Source: Rhodoligotrophos defluvii (GTDB lineage Bacteria; Pseudomonadota; Alphaproteobacteria; Rhizobiales; Im1). From it: DNA of 64,000 nt. Positions 18,263 to 30,204 of the stretch are shown here, one piece after another. The notes under the pieces were generated by a model, which was given only the letters and a program-made list of their open reading frames with translations, did no database searches and was not told where the DNA came from. Location of the stretch: the NCBI RefSeq assembly GCF_005281615.1, contig NZ_SZZM01000008.1, positions 1 through 64,000 on the forward strand. Reading direction: 5' to 3'. The translations under genes and the position numbers were made by a program. Position 1 is the first letter of the stretch; each line of letters begins with the position of its first letter.

Positions 18263-18955
18263 TCAGCGGCTAGCGGCCTTCAGGGGCTCCGTGCCGGCGG
18301 CCGATTTGGTGAGATAGGCCACGATGCCTTCACCGCCGCGCAGGATGTCCTGCTCCATGGCGCGGCGCGCCTTCGGCCCGTCGCGCCGCTCCAGGGCTTC
18401 GATCAGGTGGATGTGCTCGTCGGCGATCAGGTAATCCGGCGGGATATCCTCGTGATAGACCTTGAGAATCGGGCCCATGGAGACCCACAGGCTCTCGATC
18501 TGGGCGACCAGCATTTCCAGGCGCGAGAGGCGGTAGACGCCGAAATGGAAATCGCGGTTGAGGCGGTTGGCGGTGGTCGCATCGCCGGCATTGCGGGCAG
18601 CCTCGAACTTGGTCTGGATCGCGCGGAGATGACCGATGTCCTCAGGCGTGGCGTGTTCGGCGGCCCGCTCGGCGGCGAGGCCTTCCAGGGCGATGCGGAT
18701 GGTGCGGATCTCCAAATAGCGCGGCAGGTCGAGCGCCGGCACGGTGACGAAGCGGCCGGAGCGCATTTCGAGGCCACGCTCGCTGACGAGCCGCAGGCAA
18801 GCCTCGCGCACGGGCGTGACGCTGGTGCCCAGCTTGTCCGCCAGATCCTGCAGGACCAGACGCTGGCCCGGGCCGAAGGCGCCGGAGATGAGCGCTTCGC
18901 GCAAGGTGGAATAGACGCGGGTCGAGAGATTGCCGGGCTCCAGGCGCTGGATCAT
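18263..18955 (-). CDS. GntR-family regulator, FCD subfamily
   Basis: A 230-aa repressor-type protein. The N-terminal winged helix (about 8-75) contains STRVYSTLREALISG and the recognition segment LADKLGTSVTPVREAC. The C-terminal all-helical FCD domain carries metal-site residues in NRDFHFGVY and DEHIHLIEAL. Start ATG 18955 has GAGG upstream. It follows the split transketolase genes by 10 bases, so it is in the same operon. It likely controls both that operon and the divergent transporter operon through the near-palindrome at 20890-20905. The inducer is probably a small organic acid or sugar acid, as for other FCD proteins. Confidence 0.93.
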   Translation of the reverse strand: MIQRLEPGNLSTRVYSTLREALISGAFGPGQRLVLQDLADKLGTSVTPVREACLRLVSERGLEMRSGRFVTVPALDLPRYLEIRTIRIALEGLAAERAAEHATPEDIGHLRAIQTKFEAARNAGDATTANRLNRDFHFGVYRLSRLEMLVAQIESLWVSMGPILKVYHEDIPPDYLIADEHIHLIEALERRDGPKARRAMEQDILRGGEGIVAYLTKSAAGTEPLKAASR

Positions 18956-18965
18956 CGCGTCATCC

Positions 18966-19946
18966 TCATAAGCTCGCCAGCGCCTCCCGGGCGACCGCCT
19001 CGATGCCCGGCGCATCCAGGCGGTAATGGGCATAAAGATGAGTCGGCGGCGCGATCAGGCTGTATTCATCCATGATGCCATGGCGGATCAGCCGCGCTTC
19101 GCCGCCGGTCTCGGCCATGACCTCGGCGACCGCACCGCCCAGCCCGCCGATGATGTTGTGCTCCTCGACGGTGAGGATGAGCTTGGAGCGCATGGCCTGA
19201 ACCACGGCATCGCGATCGAGCGGCTTGATGGTATGCATGTCGACGAAGCCGACGGAGCGGCCCTCGGCGCGCAGGGCCTTCACTGCCTGAAGCGCCGGGT
19301 GCACCGTGCTGCCGCAGGCGATGACGGTGAGCTCCTCGCCCTCGCAATGGGTGACGGCCTTGCCGAAGCGGAACTCGCCGGCGTCGTCATAGACCTGCGG
19401 GTCGTGGCCGCGGCCGATGCGGAAATAGATGGGCTGACGATAGTTTACAGACGCCTTGAGGGCGGTGGCGAATTGTACGCCGTCGGCGGGGGCGACCACG
19501 GTGAGGTCGGCGATCGACCGCATGATGGCGATGTCTTCGGTGGCATGGTGGGAGGTGCCGTAGAAGCCCATGGCGATGCCGGTATGGTGGCCGATGAGCC
19601 GCACCGGCAGGTCGGAATAGGCGATGTCGGTGCGGATCTGCTCGCAGCAGAGCAGGGCGAGGAAGGACGCGAAGGTCGCCACATAGGGCATGATGCCGGT
19701 GGTGGCGAGGCCTGCGGCCGCCGATACCATGTTCTGCTCGGAAATGCCGAACTGGATGAAGCGCTCGGGGTGCTTGCGGGCGAAGGCGGCGAGGCCGTTG
19801 GAATATTGCAGGTCGGCGGTGATGGCCGCCACGGGATGGCCGGCATCGGCGAGCTCGTTCAGTGTTTGCGCCAGCACACCCAGGGTGGGCGCGCGGGTGG
19901 CCAGCTGCCGATAGTGCCAGGACGCCGGGTCGACCGGTCCGTTCAT
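18966..19946 (-). CDS. Transketolase, C-terminal (pyrimidine-binding) subunit
   Basis: The second half of a split thiamine-diphosphate transketolase (326 aa). It contains the Pyr domain, with FIQFGISEQNMVSAAAGLA carrying the Glu that activates the cofactor, then SHHATEDIAIMR and GRGHDPQVYDD. A C-terminal transketolase domain follows (SVGFVDMHTIKPLD). Start ATG 19946 overlaps the stop of the N-terminal subunit as ATGA, so the two are coupled and expected to form a heterotetramer. Split transketolases of this kind include the apulose-4-phosphate enzymes and other specialised catabolic versions; the ketose substrate here is unknown. Confidence 0.93.
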   Translation of the reverse strand: MNGPVDPASWHYRQLATRAPTLGVLAQTLNELADAGHPVAAITADLQYSNGLAAFARKHPERFIQFGISEQNMVSAAAGLATTGIMPYVATFASFLALLCCEQIRTDIAYSDLPVRLIGHHTGIAMGFYGTSHHATEDIAIMRSIADLTVVAPADGVQFATALKASVNYRQPIYFRIGRGHDPQVYDDAGEFRFGKAVTHCEGEELTVIACGSTVHPALQAVKALRAEGRSVGFVDMHTIKPLDRDAVVQAMRSKLILTVEEHNIIGGLGGAVAEVMAETGGEARLIRHGIMDEYSLIAPPTHLYAHYRLDAPGIEAVAREALASL

Positions 19947-20833
19947 CGGGCAAGTCCCCGCTTCAGTTCGGCAATGGCCAGCGCCTCGTCCTCTGGGCCG
20001 AGATAGCCGAGATGCCAGCCGTGCTCCTTCTCCATATAGCTGACGCCCTTGCCCTTGACGGTGTTGGCGATAATGCAGGCCGGCTGCCGCCGCGAGCGGT
20101 CCGCCTTGACCCTGCGCAGGGTGGCGACAAGGGCCGCCATGTCGTGGCCGTCGACTTCGTGCACCTCCCAGCCGAAGGCGCGCCATTTCTCGTCCAGCGG
20201 CTCGATGCCGATGACGTCAGGCACGCTGCCGTCGAGCTGAACGCCGTTGCGGTCGACGATGGCGACGAGGTTGGCGGTGCGGTGATGGCTCGCGGCCATG
20301 GCGGCGGCCCAGACCTGGCCTTCCTGCATCTCGCCGTCGCCGAGCAGCACATAGGTCAGAAAATCCTTGTTCTGCATGCGCGCGCCGAGGGCCATGCCGA
20401 GGCCGGCGGACAGGGCATGGCCGATCGAGCCGGAGCTGAAGTCCACACCCTTGACCAGGCGGCGGTCGGGATGATCGCCCAAGGGGCTGCCGAGACGCGT
20501 GTAGCTGTCCAGCATGTCCTTGGGGAAGAAGTCGAGATCGGCGAGGATGGGGAACAGGCCGACGGCGGCATGGCCCTTGCCCATGAGGAAACGGTCGCGG
20601 TCCGGCCACTCCGGCTCGCCGCGGCGCAGGCGCATCACATCGTAATAGAGGGCGGCGAAGATCTCGGCGCAGGAGAAGACGGAGGAGTAATGGCCCACCT
20701 TGGCGATGGAGATGAGCCGCACGGTTTCGAGGCGCACGAACAGGGCGCGGTCGATGAGAAAGTCGAGCTCCTGGCGCGATGGCGCCCGATCCTGGTCGCC
20801 CGGTGTTTCGGCCTGTGACGTGGTCTGGGCCAT
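19943..20833 (-). CDS. Transketolase, N-terminal (ThDP diphosphate-binding) subunit
   Basis: The first half of the split enzyme (296 aa). It contains the conserved KVGHYSSVFSCAEI region, MGKGHAAVGLFPI, DFSSGSIGHALSAGLGMALG and the ThDP/Mg motif GDGEMQEGQVWAAAMAA followed by VDRNGVQLDG. All cofactor-binding residues seem to be in place. It is the first gene of the leftward operon and faces the peptide-transporter operon across a 178-base region that holds a probable GntR operator. Confidence 0.94.
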   Translation of the reverse strand: MAQTTSQAETPGDQDRAPSRQELDFLIDRALFVRLETVRLISIAKVGHYSSVFSCAEIFAALYYDVMRLRRGEPEWPDRDRFLMGKGHAAVGLFPILADLDFFPKDMLDSYTRLGSPLGDHPDRRLVKGVDFSSGSIGHALSAGLGMALGARMQNKDFLTYVLLGDGEMQEGQVWAAAMAASHHRTANLVAIVDRNGVQLDGSVPDVIGIEPLDEKWRAFGWEVHEVDGHDMAALVATLRRVKADRSRRQPACIIANTVKGKGVSYMEKEHGWHLGYLGPEDEALAIAELKRGLAR

Positions 20834-20889
20834 TCCCCCGCCTTCCTGATCTGCCCATCTTCAGAGCCGTTGACGACTCCAGTCAAATG

Positions 20890-20905
20890 ATATCGTATAG
20901 GATAT
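20890..20905. promoter_or_regulatory. Probable GntR/FCD operator
   Basis: ATATCGTATAGGATAT is a 16-bp near-perfect palindrome; only the symmetric sixth positions fail to pair. It lies 57 bases from the transketolase start and 107 bases from the transporter start, in the only intergenic space shared by both operons. FCD-type GntR proteins often bind AT-rich palindromes with a central TATA or TATAC. A TTGACG at 20870-20875 just upstream could be a -35 box for the rightward operon, which would place the site over the -10 region. Confidence 0.65.
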
Positions 20906-21011
20906 AACATTGATCTTGGCGAGGGGCGCAAGATGGATCTTGGCCTCGCTGGCCGAGACGGCAGTGGGGGTCGAGGGCCGTGTCCGACGGTCGCATCAGG
21001 GGAGATGAGGG

Positions 21012-22541
21012 ATGTCACTACGCGTCATGAGCATGGCCGCCGGGCTGTTGTCGGCGCTGACGATGGGTCACCTGGCGCAGGCGCAGGAGGTGTTCGTCTG
21101 GGCGGATGCGGCCGAGCCAACCACGGTCGATCCGGCCAAGGTCAATGTGAATCACGAGATGACCATCGCCCGGAACGTGTTCGACCGGCTCGTGAACTAC
21201 GACCTCAAGCAGCCGGACAAGCTCTTGCCGGGGCTCGCCACGAGCTGGAAGCAGGACGGCACCAAGTGGACCTTCACCCTGCGGGACGGGGTGAAATTCC
21301 ATGACGGCACCCCGTTCGACGCCGAGGACGTGAAGGCCACCATCGAGCGCGACCTGCGCATCGGCCAGGGCCAGAGCTATTTGATTGCCGACATCGACAA
21401 GGTGACGGTGGTCGATCCCAAGACGGTGGAGATCGAGACCAAGGCGCCGAACGTGTTCCTGGCGGGCAATCTCGCCCGCAGCGAGATCATGTCGGCGGAG
21501 GACATTGCCAAGCACGCCAGCGAGCCGGACAAGGGGGACGCCTATTTCAACGAGAACGCCAACGGGACCGGCCCCTACAAGATGGTGAGCTGGACGCGCG
21601 GGGCACAGATCGACCTGGAGCGCAACAAGGACTGGTGGGGCACGTTTCCCGACAAGGCCTATGACCGGGTGATCGACCGGTTCGTGACCGAAGGCTCGAA
21701 CCGCGCCCGTGGCCTGGAAGGTGGCGAATACGACCTCGCCAATTTCGTGCCGCGCGACGAGGCGCTGCGCATCGGCAAGAGCCCCGGTTTCACTCTGGTC
21801 GAAGGCAACAATCTGTGGGCGTGGCCGGCGATCTACCTGAATTCCACGCTCGCGCCGACCGATAACGCGGATTTCCGCGACGCACTGACCAAGGTCTATG
21901 ACTACAACGCCATGAACCAGTACTTCCAGGGTTCATCGGTGACGCCGCGCGGACCCGTTCCGGCCTGGGTGCCCGGCAGTCCCGAGAACGACATGGCGCC
22001 CATTCAGCAGGATGTCGAGAAGGCGAAGGCGGCGCTGGAGAAGGCCGGCGTGACCAACCCGACCATGAAATGCTCGGTGCCGTCGGAGTTCACCGAGTTC
22101 GCCTTCGCGGCCACGGTGCTGCAGGCCTCTGCTGCGCAGATCGGCATCACGGTCGAGATCGAGCTTCTGCCTTTCGTAGAGGCGATCACCGCGGCCAAGT
22201 CGAACAAGAGCAATTGCTTCATCATCGGCAATGCGAACCTGAGCCCGACCGATCCGACCAAGTTCTTCGCGGCCCATTACCTCACGGGCGGGTTCTATAA
22301 CGCGGCCAATTATTCCAACCCGGAGCTCGACGCGCTGGTCGCCAAGATCCCGACGATCACGGACGACAAGGAGCGGTACGAGGCGCTGAAGAAGGCGGCG
22401 GAGATGGTGGTCGACAGCCACACCATCATCTGGACGGCGAGGCCAACGACCGTGGTGCCGGTGCCGGACCACGTGCAAGGCTACCAGATCGACCCGGCCG
22501 AATATATCAATGTGCGGCTGTGGGAACTGCACGAGAAGTAA
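21012..22541 (+). CDS. ABC transporter substrate-binding protein, family 5 (peptide/nickel type)
   Basis: A periplasmic binding protein of 509 aa with a Sec signal ending near QAQA. The mature protein has the SBP_bac_5 pattern: EPTTVDPAKVNVNHEM, RNVFDRLVNYD, LPGLATSWKQDGTKWTFTLR, GVKFHDGTPFDAEDVKAT and ANGTGPYKMVSW. A strong ribosome site (GGGGAG, GAGGG) precedes the ATG. Family members bind peptides, opines, glycosides or nickel. The neighbours here point to a sugar-acid-type ligand instead of a peptide. It leads a seven-to-eight-gene rightward operon. Confidence 0.95.
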   Translation: MSLRVMSMAAGLLSALTMGHLAQAQEVFVWADAAEPTTVDPAKVNVNHEMTIARNVFDRLVNYDLKQPDKLLPGLATSWKQDGTKWTFTLRDGVKFHDGTPFDAEDVKATIERDLRIGQGQSYLIADIDKVTVVDPKTVEIETKAPNVFLAGNLARSEIMSAEDIAKHASEPDKGDAYFNENANGTGPYKMVSWTRGAQIDLERNKDWWGTFPDKAYDRVIDRFVTEGSNRARGLEGGEYDLANFVPRDEALRIGKSPGFTLVEGNNLWAWPAIYLNSTLAPTDNADFRDALTKVYDYNAMNQYFQGSSVTPRGPVPAWVPGSPENDMAPIQQDVEKAKAALEKAGVTNPTMKCSVPSEFTEFAFAATVLQASAAQIGITVEIELLPFVEAITAAKSNKSNCFIIGNANLSPTDPTKFFAAHYLTGGFYNAANYSNPELDALVAKIPTITDDKERYEALKKAAEMVVDSHTIIWTARPTTVVPVPDHVQGYQIDPAEYINVRLWELHEK

Positions 22542-22547
22542 GGGGCG

Positions 22548-23561
22548 ATGGCAGGGTTTCTGGTCAGGCGTGTTGGTTGGGCCCTGCTTGTCCTCCTGGT
22601 GGTGGCGACCGTCACCTTCTTCCTGAGCCGCGTGGTGCCGGCGGATCCGGCGGCTTTCCTGGCGGGGCAAAACGCTTCCGCCGAGACGGTCGCCCGGATC
22701 CGCGCCGAATACGGGCTCGATAAGCCGCTGCTCAGCCAGTATGTGGACTATCTCGCGGGGCTGACGCGCGGCGATTTCGGCCTGTCGCTCCGGACCAAGC
22801 AGGCGGTGGCCGAAGACCTCGCCCAGTTCCTGCCGGCTACGCTCGAGCTGCTGATCGTCAGCTTCATCATCTATATCGCGGTGAGCTTCGCCCTGGCGGT
22901 GGCGGCGGCACGGCGCCAGGGTGGCGCGGTGGATAGCGGCATCCGGCTGTTCACCATGCTGGGCAGCGGCATCCCGGTGTTCTGGCTGGGCATGGCATTG
23001 CAGTTCATCTTCTTCTACAAGATGGGCCTGCTGCCGCTCAGCGGACGCTTTCCCCTGCGCGAGGTGGCGCCGCCTGTGGTGACCGGCTTCCTGCTGATCG
23101 ACACACTGCTGGCGGGCGACCTTGCCGCCTTCTGGTCGGCGGCCAAGTGCCTGGTGCTGCCGGCGTTGACCATCGTCATCAACCTTCTGGCGGTGGGCAC
23201 GCGCATGTCGCGGGCCGCGCTCATCAGTGAATATCAGAAGCAATATGTGAAGACGGCGCGCGGCAAGGGGGTGGGAGCGTCGCGGGTGCTGTACAAGCAT
23301 GTGCTGCGCAACGCGCTCTCGCCGCTGCTGACCGTCACCAGCATGCAGTTCGGCTACATGATCAGCTGGGTGATCCTGGTGGAGGTGATCTTCGACTGGC
23401 CGGGCATCGGGCTCTATGCCTACAAGTCGTTCCAGGTGTTCGACTACGCGCCGGTGGTGGCCCTGGCCATTGTCTCGACCGCGGTGTTCTCGCTGATCAA
23501 CGTGATCCTCGACCTGTTGGCGCCGGTGATCGATCCGCGGGTGCGGAGCGCGGCGGCATGA
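22548..23561 (+). CDS. ABC transporter permease (DppB/OppB type)
   Basis: The 337 residues open FLVRRVGWALLVLLVVATVTFFLSRVVPADPA, the classic first helix of DppB-type permeases. After the periplasmic loop (EYGLDKPLLSQYVDYL) come five more spans. The EAA coupling loop reads YVKTARGKGVGASRVLYKHVLRNAL. It lies 6 bases after the binding protein gene and overlaps the second permease by 4 bases. Confidence 0.95.
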   Translation: MAGFLVRRVGWALLVLLVVATVTFFLSRVVPADPAAFLAGQNASAETVARIRAEYGLDKPLLSQYVDYLAGLTRGDFGLSLRTKQAVAEDLAQFLPATLELLIVSFIIYIAVSFALAVAAARRQGGAVDSGIRLFTMLGSGIPVFWLGMALQFIFFYKMGLLPLSGRFPLREVAPPVVTGFLLIDTLLAGDLAAFWSAAKCLVLPALTIVINLLAVGTRMSRAALISEYQKQYVKTARGKGVGASRVLYKHVLRNALSPLLTVTSMQFGYMISWVILVEVIFDWPGIGLYAYKSFQVFDYAPVVALAIVSTAVFSLINVILDLLAPVIDPRVRSAAA

Positions 23562-24415
23562 GCACGCCGGCCGAACCCGCTGCCGCCCCGGCGAGGCGGC
23601 GCGTGCGTTCCAGCGGCGTGCTGGTGGCGATCGCCTGGTGCGTGCTGGCAGTGCTCTTGGCCTTCGCGCTGTTTCCCGAGCTGATCGCGCCACGCAGCCC
23701 GATCGCCCTCGACATCATGAACCGGCTGAAGCCGCCGAGCCCCGCTTATCCGTTCGGCACCGATGAGGGCGGGCGCGATCTGCTCTCACGGGTGATCTAC
23801 GGCACCCGCTATTCCCTTGGCGTGGCGGTGGCGATCGTGTTCAGCGCGGCTGTCTTCGGGGTGGTGTATGGGGCGATCGCCGGCATGGCGCGGCCATGGA
23901 TCGACGAGATCCTCATGCGCATCGTGGACGTGTTCTTCGGCTTTCCCGCGCTGGTCTTGGCCTTGGCAGTGGCCGCGGCCATGGGGCGGGGCTTATGGAG
24001 CGTGACCCTTGCCTTGTCGATCATCTGGTGGCCCGGCTTTGCCCGGCTGGTGCGCGGCGAGGTGATGCGCATCAAGGAATTGCCCCATGTGGAGGCGGCG
24101 CGCTCGCTGGGCGTGCCGACGCTGACGCTGGTGCGGCGGCACATTCTGCCCTTCGTGTTCCAGGAGGTGAATGTGCGGCTGACCACCGACATCGGCTATG
24201 CGCTGGTGGCGGTGACTGCACTGTCGTTCCTGGGGCTTGGCGCGCAGTCGCCGACGCCGGAATGGGGCCTGTTGATCCGCGACAGTCGCAACTATTTCGG
24301 CAATGCCTGGTGGTATCTGGTGTTTCCCGGCGTGATGGTGATGATCACCACTGCCGCCTTTTCCATCATCGGCGACAGTTTCGCCCCGAAGCAGACGTCG
24401 GGGGCGGTACCATGA
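23558..24415 (+). CDS. ABC transporter permease (DppC/OppC type)
   Basis: The second membrane subunit (285 aa). The N-terminal helix is followed by the DppC hallmark PFGTDEGGRDLLSRVIYGTR. Later spans include the EAA loop EAARSLGVPTLTLVRRHILP and the closing FLGLGAQSPTPEWGLLI. Both ends overlap neighbours as ATGA, which supports tight coupling with the upstream permease and the downstream ATPase. Confidence 0.95.
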   Translation: MSTPAEPAAAPARRRVRSSGVLVAIAWCVLAVLLAFALFPELIAPRSPIALDIMNRLKPPSPAYPFGTDEGGRDLLSRVIYGTRYSLGVAVAIVFSAAVFGVVYGAIAGMARPWIDEILMRIVDVFFGFPALVLALAVAAAMGRGLWSVTLALSIIWWPGFARLVRGEVMRIKELPHVEAARSLGVPTLTLVRRHILPFVFQEVNVRLTTDIGYALVAVTALSFLGLGAQSPTPEWGLLIRDSRNYFGNAWWYLVFPGVMVMITTAAFSIIGDSFAPKQTSGAVP

Positions 24416-25386
24416 TCCTGTCGGTGCGCGATCTTGCCATCAGCTTCGACACGGCGGTCGGCCCATTGCGGGCGGTGGACGGCATCTCCTTCGACGTGGC
24501 GGAAGGCGAGTTCTTCCTGATCATCGGCGAATCCGGCTCAGGCAAGACGCTCACCGGCAGCGCCATCGTGGGCCTGACCCCGCCCGAGGCGCGGCTGTCC
24601 GGCTCGATCCGGTTCCAGGGGCGCGAGCTGCTCAACCGTCCGGATGCGGAGCTGCGCGAGGTGCGCGGGCGCGATATCGGCATCGTCTACCAGAACCCGC
24701 TGAGCGCCATGAACCCGGTGTGGCCGGTGGGCGACCAGATTGCCGAGGCGCTGCTGGTGCACGGGCTGGCGGACCGCAAGGGCGCGGCCAAGCGCGCGGT
24801 GGAGCTGCTGGAGCGGGTGCATCTGCCCGACCCCCAGCGGGTGGCGCGGGCCTATCCGCACGAGATCAGCGGCGGCATGCGGCAGCGGGCGATGATCGCC
24901 ATGGCGCTGGCCTGCGGGCCGAAGCTGCTGATCGCGGACGAGCCGACCACCGCGCTGGACGTGACCATCAAGGCGCAGGTGCTGGAGCTTCTGGCCGAGC
25001 TGCGCGACGAGATGGGGCTGACGGTCATTCTCATCACCCATGACATGGGCGTGGTGGCGGAGCTCGCCGACCGCATTCTGGTGATGTATGCGGGACGGGT
25101 GGCGGAGATCGGCCCGGCGGATGCGCTGATGACGGCGCCGGCGCATCCCTATACGGAAGCGCTGATGCTGAGCGGGGCCATCGCCGAGACGCCGTTCAAG
25201 GCAACGCTCAGGGCCATTCCCGGCGCAGCGCCCGGCCTCGGTGGTCAGCGCGAGGAATGCCGGTTCCATGCGCGCTGCCCGCGCGCCGAGGCGGACTGCC
25301 GGAGGATGAAGCCGCCGTTGCGGCCGCTGGGGGGCGGTGAGGCGGCCTGTTTCCATCCGCTGGTGGAGGCGCCGGTGCCGGCATGA
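24412..25386 (+). CDS. ABC transporter ATP-binding protein (DppD/OppD type)
   Basis: A 324-aa nucleotide-binding subunit; the start at 24412 forms the ATGA overlap. Walker A is GESGSGKT, the signature is SGGMRQRAM, Walker B is [12 protein letters not shown] and the switch His is in LITHDMG. The C-terminal oligopeptide-transporter extension carries the Cys motif [14 protein letters not shown], which often holds an Fe-S cluster or metal in DppD/OppD relatives. Confidence 0.95.
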
Positions 25387-26423
25387 GCGCGCTGCTCGAA
25401 CTCGACCAGGTGGTGAAGGCGTTCCGGCAGCGCGGTGCCCGCGGCCGCGAGATCCGCGCGGTGGATGGCGTGTCGCTGACGGTCAACCGGGGCGAGACGT
25501 TAGGCATTGTCGGGGAGAGCGGGTGCGGCAAATCGACGGTGGCGCGGCTTGCCCTGCGGCTGCTCGAGCCGACGGCGGGGCGCGTGCGCTTCGCCGGTGA
25601 GGATATCACCTTGGCGCGGCCTGCGGCGCTGATGCCCGTGCGGCGGCGCATGCAGGCGATCTTCCAGGACCCGCTCGCGTCGTTCAACCCGAACATGACC
25701 ATTCGCCAGATCATGGCGGAGCCGTTCGAAACGCATGGCCTGAAGCCGGAGGAGGGGATCGAGGCGCGGGCCCGGGCGCTACTCAAGGCGAGCGGCATGG
25801 CCGATGTGGATCTCTCCAAGCGGCCGGCGGCGTTTTCCGGCGGGCAGCTGCAGCGCATCGCCATCGCGCGGGCGCTGGCGCTGGAGCCGGAGCTGATCAT
25901 CGCGGACGAGCCGACCTCGGCGCTCGACCCCTCGATCCAGGCGCAGATCGTGAATGCGCTGCTGGAGATCCAGAAGGCGCGCGGCATCGCCTATATGATC
26001 ATCTCGCACGATCTCGACGTGCTCGGCCACATGGCCGACCGGCTGGCGGTGATGTATCTGGGCGTGGTGGTCGAGACCGGGCCGGGGCCGCAGGTGATGA
26101 ACCTGCCGCTGCATCCCTATACCCAGGCGCTGCTCTCTGCGGCGCCTACCCTCAAGGCGCGGCGCGACCGCTCGTGGCGGCGCATTTTGCTGCCGGGCGA
26201 TCCGCCCAATCCGGCAGCGGTGCCGCAGGGCTGCCGGTTCCATCCGCGCTGCTCGCTTGCCCGCGACATCTGCCGCAGAGATGTGCCGCCGCTGCGGCCC
26301 GTAGCGGATAATGGCCAGTTGGTCGCCTGTCATTTCGCGCCCGACGAGACCAGGACGCGGGGCGAGGCGATTTCGCTGGCCCGTCGCGGGCTGCCGATGC
26401 GCTCCCAGGAGGTGATCGCGTGA
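25383..26423 (+). CDS. ABC transporter ATP-binding protein (DppF/OppF type)
   Basis: The second ATPase (346 aa) pairs with the previous one. Walker A is GESGCGKST, the signature SGGQLQRIAIA, Walker B LIIADEPTSALD and the switch HDLDVL. The C-terminal extension has CRFHPRCSLARDIC. Its start overlaps the previous stop (ATGA) and its end overlaps the GTG of the SMP-30 gene (GTGA). Confidence 0.95.
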   Translation: MSALLELDQVVKAFRQRGARGREIRAVDGVSLTVNRGETLGIVGESGCGKSTVARLALRLLEPTAGRVRFAGEDITLARPAALMPVRRRMQAIFQDPLASFNPNMTIRQIMAEPFETHGLKPEEGIEARARALLKASGMADVDLSKRPAAFSGGQLQRIAIARALALEPELIIADEPTSALDPSIQAQIVNALLEIQKARGIAYMIISHDLDVLGHMADRLAVMYLGVVVETGPGPQVMNLPLHPYTQALLSAAPTLKARRDRSWRRILLPGDPPNPAAVPQGCRFHPRCSLARDICRRDVPPLRPVADNGQLVACHFAPDETRTRGEAISLARRGLPMRSQEVIA

Positions 26424-27262
26424 CCAAGTACAAGGTGGAAGTGGAGGGACTTGGGTTTCCCGAGGGGCCGGTGTCGCTGCCGGACGGTTCAATCGCCTTT
26501 GTCGACCTGACGCATCAGAAGATCCGCCGGTTTCATGATGGCGACCTGACTGAGCTATCCGCGCTGGAAGGCTCGCCCAACGGCATGCGCTTGGGTGCGG
26601 ATGGGCATCTCTATGTCTGCAATAATGGGGGGCTGAGACCCAGCCGCGCCCATGGGCTGATGCGGGCGGAGCCGGAGATTTCCGGGCGCGTGCAGCGGGT
26701 TGCGCTGGATGGAACGGTCGCCGACGTGGCGGTGGATCTGCCAGGGGCGAAGCCGTCGCGGCCCAACGACCTGCAGTTCACGCCGGAGGGCGACATCGTC
26801 TTCACCGACCCGCAGAATTGGGAAACGCTGGGCAGCGCGCCCGACCGGTATCATGGCGGGCAGCTGCTGAAGGCGAGCCTTCAGGGCGAGGTCGAGGTGA
26901 TGGCAGAGATGGAGGGCTTCCCCAACGGGCTCGTCTTCCATCCGGATGGATCGCTGCTGGTGGGCACCAGTGTCGGACATAAGCTGTTCCGCTTTTCCTG
27001 GGAGAGCGGCCGGGCCGGCGCGGCGGAGGAATGGCAGCGCTTCGATGACCGGTTCGGTCCGGACGGCATGGCGGTGCACGAGGACCGCATCTATCTCGCC
27101 GGGAGCGTCGGTGATCGGATCGCGGTGCTCGATCTCTCCGGGCGTCTCATCCGCATGATCGACATGGGCTGGGGGAGCGATCCGACCAATCTCTGCATCC
27201 ACCAGGGACTGTTGTGGGTGACCCTGGGCTATCCCGGGCAGCTCGTGTCCATGGAACTGTAG
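26420..27262 (+). CDS. SMP-30/gluconolactonase-like hydrolase
   Basis: The 280-aa six-bladed propeller family protein probably opens a sugar lactone. The metal-site residues are visible: the Glu in GFPEGPV, the Asn in PNGMRLGADG and PNDLQFTPEGDIVFTDP, and the Asp in GPDGMAVHEDRIYLAG. It starts with GTG overlapping the ATPase stop, so it is translated with the transporter. Its position between a transporter and an acid-sugar kinase suggests that it turns a lactone intermediate into the free acid. Arylesterase-type activity cannot be ruled out. Confidence 0.9.
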   Translation: MTKYKVEVEGLGFPEGPVSLPDGSIAFVDLTHQKIRRFHDGDLTELSALEGSPNGMRLGADGHLYVCNNGGLRPSRAHGLMRAEPEISGRVQRVALDGTVADVAVDLPGAKPSRPNDLQFTPEGDIVFTDPQNWETLGSAPDRYHGGQLLKASLQGEVEVMAEMEGFPNGLVFHPDGSLLVGTSVGHKLFRFSWESGRAGAAEEWQRFDDRFGPDGMAVHEDRIYLAGSVGDRIAVLDLSGRLIRMIDMGWGSDPTNLCIHQGLLWVTLGYPGQLVSMEL

Positions 27263-27291
27263 GCCTCTCAGCTAATGACGAGCAATTCTCA

Positions 27292-28926
27292 ATGACCACG
27301 CCCATGAATACACGCCCGCGCCGCATCGGCCCGATGCATGCGGATGAAAGCTGGCTCGACCGGCGCTGGTACGAGGCGCCGCGCGAGGACCCTGCCGCGC
27401 CTGAGGTCTATACCTATACGGATGCGATCTCCTATGAGGCGGGCGACGAGGTCTTGTTCCACAGCAGCACCCATGCGGCTGAGTGGTCGCTGGAGATCAT
27501 CCGCGATGGCCTTGTGCCCCGTAGCGTGCACCAGGCGATGGTGCCCGGCCGGTTCACGCCCATGCCGAGAGATGCCTACAGGGCGGGCTGCGGCTGGCCG
27601 GTAGCCTATCGCTGGCGCATTCCGGAGGATATGCCATCGGGGTTCTACCGGATGGTGTCGCGCTGCGAGCGGCCCGATGGCAGCCATTTCGTGCAGGACC
27701 ATTTCTTCGTGGTGCGGCCCAAGCCCGGCCAGCCCACGGCCAAGCTGCTGATGCTGCTGCCGACGGCGACGTATGAGGCCTATAACGACTGGGGCGGCGC
27801 CAACCACTATATCGGCATAGATGGGCCCAATGGGGACCAGGCCTCGCCGATCTTGAGCCAGCTCAGGCCATGGACCCGGGGCATGGTGTGGCATGCGCCG
27901 GATTCACCACGGCTGTGCTCGCCCATGCGGCGGTTCGGCCAGCCGCCGACCTATCACATGAAAGAATGGACCTATGCCCATGGCTACGGCTTCTTCTGCC
28001 ATGCGGCGGGCTGGGCGCAGTTCGACCGGCATTTCGCGGTGTGGGCCGAACGCGAGGGCTATGCCTTCGACATGATCACCCAGACCGACCTCCATTACCG
28101 GCCGGAGCTGCTCGATGCCTATCCGGCCCTGGTGGTGGTGGGGCATGACGAATACTGGTCGCGGGAGATGCGGCTTGCGGTCGAGGCCTATGTGGAGCGC
28201 GGTGGCCGGTTCGCCCGGTTCGGCGCCAATTTCACCTGGCAGATTCGGCTGGAGGACGAAGGCCGCAGCCAGGTCTGCTACAAGACCCGGGCGCCTGTGG
28301 AGGACCCGGTGCGCGACGGGCCGAATAGGCAGTTGCTGTCCACCGCCTGGGAGGATCATCGCGTGGCCTGGCCAGGGGCCAGCACGGTGGGCGTGAACGG
28401 GCTCGGCGGCGTCTATGCCTCATGGGGCGGGTTCGTGCCGCGGGGCAATCGCGGCTTTACCGTTTACCGCCCGGAGCATTGGATCTTCGCCGGCACCGAC
28501 CTCTCTTATGGCGACGTGTTCGGGGCGGAGGCGGAAATCTTCGCCTATGAGGTGGACGGGGTGGATTATACGTTCCGGGATGGGCTGCCTTACCCGACCG
28601 GGGCGGATGGCACGCCGAAGGAGGTTGAAATCCTCGCCATGTCGCCGGCGGTGCTGACAGAAGGCGATTTCCGCATCGAAGCCTTCCGCCACTATATCGG
28701 CAACAATGACCAGGTGCAGAAGGCCGAGATGGTCTATGGCGAGGTGAGCCCGGAGACCATGGCCAAGTCGAGATACGGCGCCGGCATGATGGTGCATATG
28801 CCGCGGGGCAAGGGCGAGGTGCTGACCGCCGCCACCTGCGAATGGGTGATGGGGCTTGCGCGCAACGAGCCGTTCACGCAACAGATCACCCGCAACGTGC
28901 TCAATCGGTTCTGCGGGAGCGAATAG
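27292..28926 (+). CDS. N,N-dimethylformamidase large-subunit-like protein
   Basis: The 544-aa protein resembles the C-terminal catalytic region of the DMFase beta subunit. It shows GDEVLFHSSTHAAEWSLEI, a long TYEAYNDWGGANHY segment and GHDEYWSREMRLAVEAYVERGG, then GTDLSYGDVFG. DMFases hydrolyse small N-alkyl amides at a mononuclear iron held by Tyr and Glu residues; Y288 in HDEYW is a good candidate ligand. No small alpha subunit is encoded beside it. Start ATG 27292 leaves a 29-base gap after the SMP-30 gene. The true substrate is unknown; an amide or N-linked sugar acid would fit the context. Confidence 0.75.
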   Translation: MTTPMNTRPRRIGPMHADESWLDRRWYEAPREDPAAPEVYTYTDAISYEAGDEVLFHSSTHAAEWSLEIIRDGLVPRSVHQAMVPGRFTPMPRDAYRAGCGWPVAYRWRIPEDMPSGFYRMVSRCERPDGSHFVQDHFFVVRPKPGQPTAKLLMLLPTATYEAYNDWGGANHYIGIDGPNGDQASPILSQLRPWTRGMVWHAPDSPRLCSPMRRFGQPPTYHMKEWTYAHGYGFFCHAAGWAQFDRHFAVWAEREGYAFDMITQTDLHYRPELLDAYPALVVVGHDEYWSREMRLAVEAYVERGGRFARFGANFTWQIRLEDEGRSQVCYKTRAPVEDPVRDGPNRQLLSTAWEDHRVAWPGASTVGVNGLGGVYASWGGFVPRGNRGFTVYRPEHWIFAGTDLSYGDVFGAEAEIFAYEVDGVDYTFRDGLPYPTGADGTPKEVEILAMSPAVLTEGDFRIEAFRHYIGNNDQVQKAEMVYGEVSPETMAKSRYGAGMMVHMPRGKGEVLTAATCEWVMGLARNEPFTQQITRNVLNRFCGSE

Positions 28927-30204
28927 GTGGCGGGCAAATTGCTGTTCGGCGCATTGGCCGACGATCTGACCGGCGGGGTGGAGCTGGCCGGCATGCTGGC
29001 GGCCGGGGGTGCCGCGACGCAGCTGGTGACCGATGCGGCCGCCGTGGACGAGGTGCGCGGGGCGGATGCCATCGTCATCGCCCGGCGCACCCGGGTGATC
29101 CCGGCGGCGGACGCGGTCGCCGCTTTCCGCGAGGGCGGAGAAGCCCTCAAGGCGCACGGCGCCCGGCAGATCTTCTACAAATACTGCGCGACGTTCGACT
29201 CGACGCCGGCCGGCAATATCGGCCCTTGCGCGGATGTGCTGCGCGAGATCACGGGGGCCGACGGCACCCTGTTCTGCCCGAGCTTTCCGGAACCGGAGCG
29301 CACGGTCTATCAGGGGCATCTCTTCGTGGGCAGCGCGCTCGTGTCCAATTCGCCGAAGCGGCTCGACCCGCTGACGCCGATGACCGAGCCGGACCTGGTG
29401 AAGGTGCTGCAGGCGCAGACCGCAACCAAGGTTGGGCTGGTGGCGCTGCCCACGGTGCTGGCGGGCGCGGAGGCGGTGCGTGCGGCCGCGCGTGCCCTGT
29501 TCGCGGCGGGCACAGCCTATGCCATCGTGGACACGGTGAGCGAGAGCGATCTCGTCACCATTGCGGAAGCGACCTGGGACTGGCCGCTGATGACCGGGGG
29601 CTCGTCCGTTGCGGCCTATTATCCCGGCCTGTGGCAGCGGCACGGGCTGCTTCAGGCTAAGGTGCCGGCGCCGCTGCCTGGCATGGACGGCCCGGGCGTG
29701 GTGCTGGCGGGCAGCTGCGCCGCTCAGACCCAGGCGCAGATGGCGGCGTTTGCTGAGTATCATCCGGTGCTGGGCATCGATCTGACCGCCAGCGAGAACG
29801 TGGAGGCGAGTGTCGCGCGGGCGCTGGACTGGGCGGAGCGCCAGGCAAGCGCCGCGGTGGGCTTCACCACCGCTGAGACTGCGGAAAGCGTTGCGGCGGC
29901 GCAGAGCGCTCTGGGCCGCGACGGGGCGGCCCGCCGGGCCGAGCAGATCCTGGCGGCCCTCGCCAAGCAGCTAGTCGAGCGCGGAACGCGGCGGCTGGTG
30001 GTGGCGGGCGGCGAGACCTCGGGCGCGGTGGTGGAGGCTCTGGGCATTCGCCGCATGACGGTGGCGCCGTTCACCCGGCCCGGCATCGGCCTATGCGTGA
30101 CTGATGCTCCGGAGCCGCTGGCCCTGTGCCTCAAATCCGGCAAGCTCGGCAGCCGCGACATGTTCGCCGAAGCCCTGGCCACCATGGGCCGGGCTCACGC
30201 GTAG
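28927..30204 (+). CDS. Four-carbon acid-sugar kinase family protein (3-oxo-tetronate kinase-like)
   Basis: A 425-aa ATP-dependent kinase of the former DUF1537 family. The N-terminal domain opens LLFGALADDLTGGVELAGML and includes YKYCATFDSTPAGNIGPCADVL. The C-terminal nucleotide domain carries RRLVVAGGETSGAVVEALGI and KSGKLGSRDMFAEAL. Family members phosphorylate 3-oxo-tetronates, D-threonate or D-erythronate on the way to DHAP or hydroxypyruvate products. The GTG start follows the previous stop directly. No dehydrogenase or decarboxylase partner (OtnC/PdxA2-like) is nearby, so the exact acid is open. Confidence 0.88.
   Translation: MAGKLLFGALADDLTGGVELAGMLAAGGAATQLVTDAAAVDEVRGADAIVIARRTRVIPAADAVAAFREGGEALKAHGARQIFYKYCATFDSTPAGNIGPCADVLREITGADGTLFCPSFPEPERTVYQGHLFVGSALVSNSPKRLDPLTPMTEPDLVKVLQAQTATKVGLVALPTVLAGAEAVRAAARALFAAGTAYAIVDTVSESDLVTIAEATWDWPLMTGGSSVAAYYPGLWQRHGLLQAKVPAPLPGMDGPGVVLAGSCAAQTQAQMAAFAEYHPVLGIDLTASENVEASVARALDWAERQASAAVGFTTAETAESVAAAQSALGRDGAARRAEQILAALAKQLVERGTRRLVVAGGETSGAVVEALGIRRMTVAPFTRPGIGLCVTDAPEPLALCLKSGKLGSRDMFAEALATMGRAHA

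What the first reader, a model, noticed from the sequence alone, without database searches (positions are those of the whole stretch)
18263..30204. Candidate undescribed catabolic pathway: split transketolase, peptide-type importer, SMP-30, DMFase-like and acid-sugar kinase under one GntR protein
Seen: two operons share one promoter region with a near-palindromic operator, and the rightward genes are joined by overlaps or gaps of about 30 bases or less. Known: SMP-30 proteins open lactones, DMFase-like proteins hydrolyse amides, DUF1537 kinases phosphorylate tetronates, and split transketolases serve special sugars such as apulose-4-phosphate. Inferred: an imported amide- or lactone-linked sugar acid is cut to a free acid, phosphorylated, and a ketose product is split by the transketolase. 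I know of no described pathway with this set, and usual partners (dehydrogenase, OtnC-like decarboxylase, aldolase) are missing.
Basis: partly seen in the sequence, partly recalled or inferred. Interest (0 to 1): 0.78.

Follow-up and report, generated by a model that had tools for sequence, protein, structure and literature searches.

The report
Gene cluster degrading an unknown amide
A bacterial gene set for importing and breaking down an unidentified amide-linked compound is real and recurs in many soil and marine bacteria, where a frequently linked extra enzyme (an aminotransferase) points to a shared, apparently undescribed route for amide-bound amino alcohols or amino sugars.

Summary
In detail: two divergent operons (split transketolase + GntR; peptide-type importer + SMP-30 + DMFase-like amidohydrolase + DUF1537 kinase) share a 178-bp promoter region. 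The association is not chance: among 80 loci around relatives of the DMFase-like protein, the close clade (56) carries the kinase in 35, a class II aldolase in 34, a FumI-like class III aminotransferase in 33 and an AroE-like dehydrogenase in 24; the more distant clade (24) carries none. The window genome has unlinked candidates for the 'missing' partners: an aminotransferase (62% to a cluster form) and a class II aldolase (54%). Best reading: an imported N-acyl vicinal amino alcohol, perhaps a lactone, is opened and deacylated; the amine becomes a ketol HOCH2-CO-CH(OH)-R, which the split transketolase cleaves or the kinase and an aldolase turn into DHAP. Substrate unknown, no activity shown; the transketolase also occurs without aminotransferase. 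New variant of a known kind.

The parts
18263..18955 (-). GntR/FCD regulator
   Evidence: PF00392 + PF07729; start by inspection
18966..19946 (-). TktC, C-terminal half of split transketolase
   Evidence: PF02779 + PF02780; residues compared with the genome's two full-length transketolases; tree
19943..20833 (-). TktN, N-terminal half of split transketolase
   Evidence: PF00456; best solved relative 6yak, split-chain transketolase
20834..21011 (.). shared divergent promoter region, 178 bp
20890..20905 (.). candidate operator ATATCGTATAGGATAT
   Evidence: unique in window; palindromicity alone 183 of 2000; weak similarity upstream of tktN in relatives
21012..22541 (+). family 5 solute-binding protein
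   Evidence: PF00496
22548..23561 (+). ABC permease (DppB-like)
   Evidence: PF00528 + PF19300
23558..24415 (+). ABC permease (DppC-like)
   Evidence: PF00528
24412..25386 (+). ABC ATPase (DppD-like)
   Evidence: PF00005 + PF08352
25383..26423 (+). ABC ATPase (DppF-like)
   Evidence: PF00005 + PF08352
26420..27262 (+). SMP-30/gluconolactonase-like protein
   Evidence: PF08450 91 bits; best solved relative a beta-propeller lactonase 7ris
27292..28926 (+). DMFase-like amidohydrolase (DMFL)
   Evidence: PF20254; fold matches 8huy and 6lvb
28927..30204 (+). DUF1537 kinase
   Evidence: NF043035 3-oxo-tetronate kinase, 408 bits, cut-off 350; PF07005 + PF17042

Best explanation
The operons are the window genome's version of a recurrent module that breaks down N-acylated vicinal amino alcohols (HOCH2-CH(NH-CO-R')-CH(OH)-R, possibly as a lactone). 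Import by an ABC transporter; ring opening by the SMP-30 protein if a lactone is present; amide hydrolysis by the DMFase-like protein; deamination by a FumI-like class III aminotransferase (encoded elsewhere in this genome) to a ketol HOCH2-CO-CH(OH)-R; then two outlets: the split transketolase moves the C2 unit to a sugar phosphate and frees R-CHO, or the DUF1537 kinase phosphorylates the ketol and a class II aldolase (also elsewhere in this genome) yields DHAP. Shown here: gene families, conserved linkage in relatives, and active-site motifs in part. Inferred: every reaction, the order, the substrate class, and that the unlinked genes take part.
For: Co-occurrence against an internal control: 56 close v. 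24 distant loci. In 397 genomes of the order TktC is in 19, the FumI-like aminotransferase in 21, both in 10 (1.0 expected; Fisher 1e-9), in 6 of the 10 within about 5 kb. The window genome's aminotransferase matches aminopentol (hydrolysed fumonisin) aminotransferase 6hbs with 451 bits over 399 residues. Parts around it are interchangeable: amide hydrolases of three Pfam families (PF20254, PF01425, PF01804) and several thiamine enzymes (split transketolase lineages, fused E1). Variovorax CP063167 has aminotransferase, GntR, TktN, TktC, amidase, penicillin acylase and binding protein in one run; Novosphingobium has class II aldolase, aminotransferase and a carbohydrate kinase in a row. The window TktC is sister (99/97) to one near the aminotransferase in a same-genus genome. 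DMFL folds like an N-acyl-beta-amino-acid acylase.
Against: In the window genome the aminotransferase and aldolase are unlinked, and that aminotransferase has its own fused E1 enzyme, binding protein and GntR beside it, so it may serve another pathway. 31 of 49 close-clade genomes lack a TktC of 48% or more. Of the four order genomes with a close DMFL, two have the transketolase linked (own, G244), G346 has it on another contig beside sugar-ABC genes, and G142 has none at E 1e-60; G399 has it unlinked too. The transketolase also occurs without annotated aminotransferase, with a glycerol dehydrogenase (4 of 11 plasmid regions viewed, of 33 records). 12 of 56 close loci show none of kinase, aldolase, aminotransferase, AroE-like or TktN (4 of these stretches are under 12 kb). 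SMP-30 is in 6 of 56. One DMFase ligand Tyr has no clear counterpart in DMFL. The L167 kinase misses the 3-oxo-tetronate kinase cut-off, and the aldolases pass neither the OtnC nor the FucA cut-offs. No substrate or activity is known.
Confidence: 0.45

Rival explanations
1. Polyol or sugar-acid route without amine: the ketol is made by a dehydrogenase from a polyol or sugar acid released by SMP-30 and DMFL; the kinase and transketolase then act as above and the aminotransferase is not involved in this genome.
For: The same transketolase family stands with glycerol dehydrogenase in 4 of 11 plasmid regions viewed, shikimate dehydrogenase in 2 of these and SMP-30 in 1; an AroE-like enzyme is in 24 of 56 close loci; the aminotransferase is unlinked in the window genome.
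Against: The nearest TktC (81%) lies near the aminotransferase; the nearest full operons (G397, G398, G443) include it; the window genome lacks the cluster-type AroE-like gene (best 33%).
Confidence: 0.2
2. One reading: an amide- or lactone-linked sugar acid is freed, the acid is phosphorylated by the kinase and a ketose product is split by the transketolase.
For: The kinase passes the 3-oxo-tetronate kinase cut-off; SMP-30 and DMFL look like hydrolases.
Against: Leaves out the aminotransferase (33 of 56 v. 0 of 24); the kinase's family acts on the 3-oxo acid rather than the free acid (NCBIfam name), so an oxidation or transamination is still needed.
Confidence: 0.15
3. Two unrelated operons share a promoter region: the split transketolase serves another sugar, and the importer-SMP-30-DMFL-kinase operon its own substrate.
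For: In G346, G399 and plasmid relatives the transketolase is away from DMFL.
Against: Linked in 16 (or 17) of the 18 close-clade genomes that have it; the same divergent tktN / binding-protein arrangement recurs in L061/L169.
Confidence: 0.12

Closest known systems
Tetronate catabolism with OtnK and OtnC (Zhang et al. 2016, recalled, not read)
   Same: kinase passes the NCBIfam 3-oxo-tetronate kinase cut-off; a class II aldolase accompanies it in relatives
   Different: the aldolases do not pass the OtnC cut-off; amide hydrolase, aminotransferase and transketolase are not part of that pathway as recalled
FumI aminopentol aminotransferase of fumonisin degradation (Sphingopyxis)
   Same: closest solved relative of the recurrent aminotransferase; it removes the C2 amino group of hydrolysed fumonisin B1 (PMC2933618, abstract start and passages; PMC9858248, passages)
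   Different: the window's importer, DMFase-like protein, kinase and transketolase are not fumonisin genes as far as recalled; the substrate here is unknown
Dimethylformamidase and N-acetyl-(R)-beta-phenylalanine acylase (DMFA2_C superfamily)
   Same: fold and Tyr/His/Glu/Asn motif positions (ligands from passages of PMC7686228)
   Different: shorter (544-545 aa against 747-762), counterpart of Tyr440 not evident
Split-gene transketolase of Carboxydothermus hydrogenoformans (6yak)
   Same: two-chain transketolase, best solved relative of TktN
   Different: there the only transketolase (passages of PMC7661550), here besides two full-length ones; Asp469 is Tyr here, and the paper says ChTK has none of the substitutions at that and other sites
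D-apiose/D-apionate catabolism with split apulose-4-phosphate transketolase and OiaK (recalled)
   Same: split transketolase and a DUF1537 kinase in related pathways
   Different: kinase scores 108 bits against the OiaK cut-off of 700
Chloramphenicol degradation by amidase, transaminase and transketolase on nitrophenylserinol (recalled; not found)
   Same: the same order of reactions is proposed here
   Different: kinase, aldolase, DMFase-like protein and importer are not part of it as recalled

Membership tests
3-oxo-tetronate kinase (OtnK) | NCBIfam NF043035 curated cut-off 350 bits | tested here: met
   408 bits; of four other module kinases 397, 415 and 431 met, L167 259 not met
Tetronate (OtnK/OtnC) pathway | 3-oxo-tetronate 4-phosphate decarboxylase OtnC over cut-off 250 (NF043034) | tested here: not met
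   the four class II aldolases tested, the window genome's included, score 100-112 bits
OiaK / D-apionate pathway | 3-oxo-isoapionate kinase cut-off 700 bits (NF042436) | tested here: not met
   108 bits
N,N-dimethylformamidase superfamily | PF20254 domain | tested here: met
   247.7 bits, cut-off 27
N,N-dimethylformamidase | iron ligands Y399, Y440, E521 with H519 and N547 | tested here: inconclusive
   Y165, H286, E288, N314 invariant in 36 sequences and aligned with family motifs; no clear Y440 counterpart in an approximate alignment. The DMFase sequence itself was not in the alignment; motif positions are inferred
N,N-dimethylformamidase | separate small subunit | not tested
   only ORFs of 90 aa or more were listed
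Transketolase | thiamine/donor histidines (EcTK H26, H66, H100, H261, H473) | tested here: met
   conserved against two full-length transketolases of the same genome; EcTK numbering partly recalled
Transketolase | ketol transfer activity | not testable with these tools
   needs an enzyme assay
FumI-type aminotransferase | full-length match to 6hbs | tested here: met
   451 bits over 399 aa for the unlinked window-genome gene
FumI-type aminotransferase | deaminates hydrolysed fumonisin B1 | not testable with these tools
   needs an enzyme assay
SMP-30 / gluconolactonase | SGL domain over Pfam cut-off | tested here: met
   91.1 bits against 26.3; lactonase activity untested

The most novel reading that the evidence does not exclude
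The transketolase and the kinase act in series: the transketolase takes the C2 unit from the ketol made from an N-acyl amino alcohol and adds it to glyoxylate, giving 3-oxo-tetronate, which the DUF1537 kinase phosphorylates and an aldolase decarboxylates to DHAP: a C2 + glyoxylate to C3 assimilation route that I do not know to be described. Against it: in Shinella, Agrobacterium and G208 kinase and aldolase go with a fused E1 enzyme instead of the transketolase.
Probability: 0.08. Interest if true: 0.82.

Novelty: new variant of a known kind. Interest (0 to 1): 0.6.

Why it matters
If right, it defines a catabolic module, seen here in Hyphomicrobiales, other Alphaproteobacteria and some Betaproteobacteria, for amide-bound amino alcohols or amino sugars, built round a FumI-like aminotransferase, a thiamine ketol-cleaving enzyme and a DUF1537 kinase with class II aldolase, with interchangeable amidohydrolases and transporters. 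It would give roles to a DMFase-like clade, to accessory split transketolases and to a sub-branch of DUF1537 kinases, and would suggest where fumonisin-deaminating enzymes came from. It can be tested directly with purified enzymes.

Tried and rejected
Apulose/apionate pathway: rejected on the OiaK cut-off. Pantothenate, acyl-homoserine lactone, opine, sphingolipid and chloramphenicol degradation were weighed as natural substrates from general knowledge only; none fits all parts. Chloramphenicol degradation through transaminase and transketolase is recalled; searches did not bring a paper on it. The transketolase change at EcTK Asp469 (Tyr here) was first read as special to amine pathways; one search shows the same GFYG motif in all 39 rows outside the divergent lineage, with or without aminotransferase, so it was dropped as evidence for the substrate. 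In one search I used the wrong strand and a protein that looks like DXP synthase as reference; with the two full-length transketolases replaces both. Aldehyde dehydrogenase and PF01425 amidase counts near the aminotransferase were not informative against loci without it (8 of 64 v. 5 of 46; 6 of 64 v. 2 of 46). The E1 threshold also caught lower-scoring proteins (330-342 bits) in 5 of 20 control loci; only the six ORFs of 1309-1494 bits are used. Fisher values treat related genomes as independent and overstate significance; many core loci are Bradyrhizobium. The rows of the divergent transketolase lineage were found through DMFL or aminotransferase bait, so their linkage to the aminotransferase is partly by selection; treekit also warns of long branches there. 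The search kept the best 80 of 96 relatives.
Full report
Observation. Pfam assigns GntR/FCD, the two transketolase halves, a family 5 binding protein with two permeases and two ATPases, an SMP-30 protein, a DMFA2_C protein and a DUF1537 kinase. Rightward genes overlap by 4 or lie within 29 bases; the two operons diverge from a 178-bp region. The palindromic site is unique in the window as a motif, but palindromicity alone arises in 183 of 2000 Markov versions. Of 8 intergenic regions in relatives that share 16 of 24 letters with it, 3 lie upstream of tktN, two of them near-copies; this is modest support. The genome has two full-length transketolases besides, and no other DUF1537 gene at E 0.001.

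Do the parts belong together? The DMFase-like protein (DMFL) was the bait. In 397 genomes of the order, four (own, 65%, 62%, 56%) hold a close relative and 18 a relative at 42-49%. A scan of named genomes gave 80 loci (96 matched, the best 80 kept). Profiles built from clusters of neighbouring ORFs gave mostly well separated scores. Of 56 loci whose DMFL is at least 50% identical to the window's, 35 hold the DUF1537 kinase, 34 a class II aldolase, 33 a class III aminotransferase, 24 an AroE-like dehydrogenase, 30 GntR, 9 the split transketolase and 6 SMP-30, within 10 kb on each side where the contig allows; of 24 loci with a more distant DMFL none holds any of these (42 and 13 loci respectively are 20 kb or more, with the same picture). 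Twelve of the 56 hold none of kinase, aldolase, aminotransferase, AroE-like or TktN; four of those twelve stretches are under 12 kb, the rest are not. The loci are related, so the p values are too small, but the arrangements differ widely.

The transketolase often lies just beyond the 10-kb flank. Of 49 close-clade genomes searched (one of 50 asked was not held), 18 have a TktC of at least 48% identity. Equal contig lengths put 16 of them on the contig of the DMFL locus, and a 17th, G427, has another DMFL gene next to it; in G399 it is on another contig. The other 31 genomes have only weaker matches (33-40%) or none at E 1e-40. In the nearest relatives of the window operon (G397, G398, G443) the aminotransferase stands between the two groups: convergent with GntR-tktC-tktN and divergent from kinase-aldolase-GntR-importer, which leads on to SMP-30 and DMFL. 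Among the four order genomes with close DMFL the transketolase is linked in two (own, G244), on another contig in G346 and absent at E 1e-60 in G142.

The added enzyme. [quoted passage not shown] PMC2933618 abstract start and passages; PMC9858248 passages: three relatives with 61-74% identity to known ones also act on it). The window genome has one at 62% identity to a cluster form, beside a fused E1-type thiamine enzyme, a binding protein and a GntR gene, and an intact class II aldolase at 54%; its best AroE-like match is 33%. In the order, aminotransferase and TktC occur together in 10 of 397 genomes where 1.0 is expected, within about 5 kb in six. They stand together without DMFL in the stretches L226-L230.

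Plasmid records repeat the pattern. Of 14 records with the aminotransferase I viewed 5: Variovorax has aminotransferase, GntR, TktN, TktC, amidase, penicillin acylase and binding protein in one run; Shinella and Agrobacterium have an E2 gene, class II aldolase, four-carbon acid sugar kinase, fused E1, binding protein and aminotransferase; Novosphingobium has aldolase, aminotransferase and a carbohydrate kinase of unchecked family; Pseudosulfitobacter has, of the module, only aminotransferase and importer. Of 33 records with TktC I viewed 11: 7 have an annotated aminotransferase and 4 of these an amidase; the other 4 have a glycerol dehydrogenase instead.

Chemistry. FumI-type transamination, oxidation by a relative of 5-ketofructose reductase, transketolase cleavage and 3-oxo-tetronate kinase all meet at the group HOCH2-CO-CH(OH)-R (fumonisin itself has CH3 in place of HOCH2; recalled); 3-oxo-tetronate is the case R = COOH. 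This is inference from families. The four aldolases tested pass the cut-offs of neither FucA nor OtnC. DMFL is modelled with pLDDT 83 and pTM 0.88 and matches N-acetyl-(R)-beta-phenylalanine acylase and dimethylformamidase by fold. It keeps what appear to be the counterparts of Tyr399, His519, Glu521 and Asn547 but not clearly Tyr440 (residues from passages of PMC7686228).

The transketolase. TktC of the window is sister to that of a same-genus genome, 81% identical, where the aminotransferase is about 4 kb away (tree support 99/97). The window enzyme keeps donor and several phosphate-site residues, but EcTK Asp469 is Tyr, as in all 39 rows outside a divergent lineage, with or without aminotransferase. 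The Carboxydothermus enzyme is said to have none of the known substitutions at that and other sites (PMC7661550 passages); in E. coli transketolase, changes at 469, 520 and 385 open the site to aromatic aldehydes (PMC5073344 passages). The divergent lineage (4 rows) is beside the aminotransferase in all four, partly by the way the rows were found.

Verdict. The cluster is real and part of a wider, apparently undescribed catabolic module. The listings (an open-licence library; one search listed 15 of 1,040) show no paper joining these families; subscription journals were not searched. The substrate and every reaction remain to be shown.

Noticed in passing
G000 contig C1, about 952.6-960.0 kb (locus L149:4086-11501): Second related locus in the same genome: fused E1-type thiamine enzyme, family 5 binding protein, FumI-like aminotransferase and GntR regulator.
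   Followed up: partly
L064, L070, L098, L252: A divergent split transketolase lineage beside the aminotransferase; the three rows aligned (L064, L070, L098) have lost the counterparts of EcTK H26, H100 and H461, so it may use a different donor.
   Followed up: partly
L113-L133 (distant DMFL clade): A clade of the DMFase-like protein at 41-47% identity to the window's, with different neighbours and unknown function.
   Followed up: no
L065-L071, L088, L112, L136 (mostly Bradyrhizobium): A second, about 750-aa DMFA2_C protein is found near DMFL, in several loci directly upstream of it.
   Followed up: no
L258, L259, L260, L261: The same split transketolase family with glycerol dehydrogenase, SDR-type genes and, in three of the four, sugar-ABC genes, without annotated aminotransferase: perhaps a polyol route.
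   Followed up: partly
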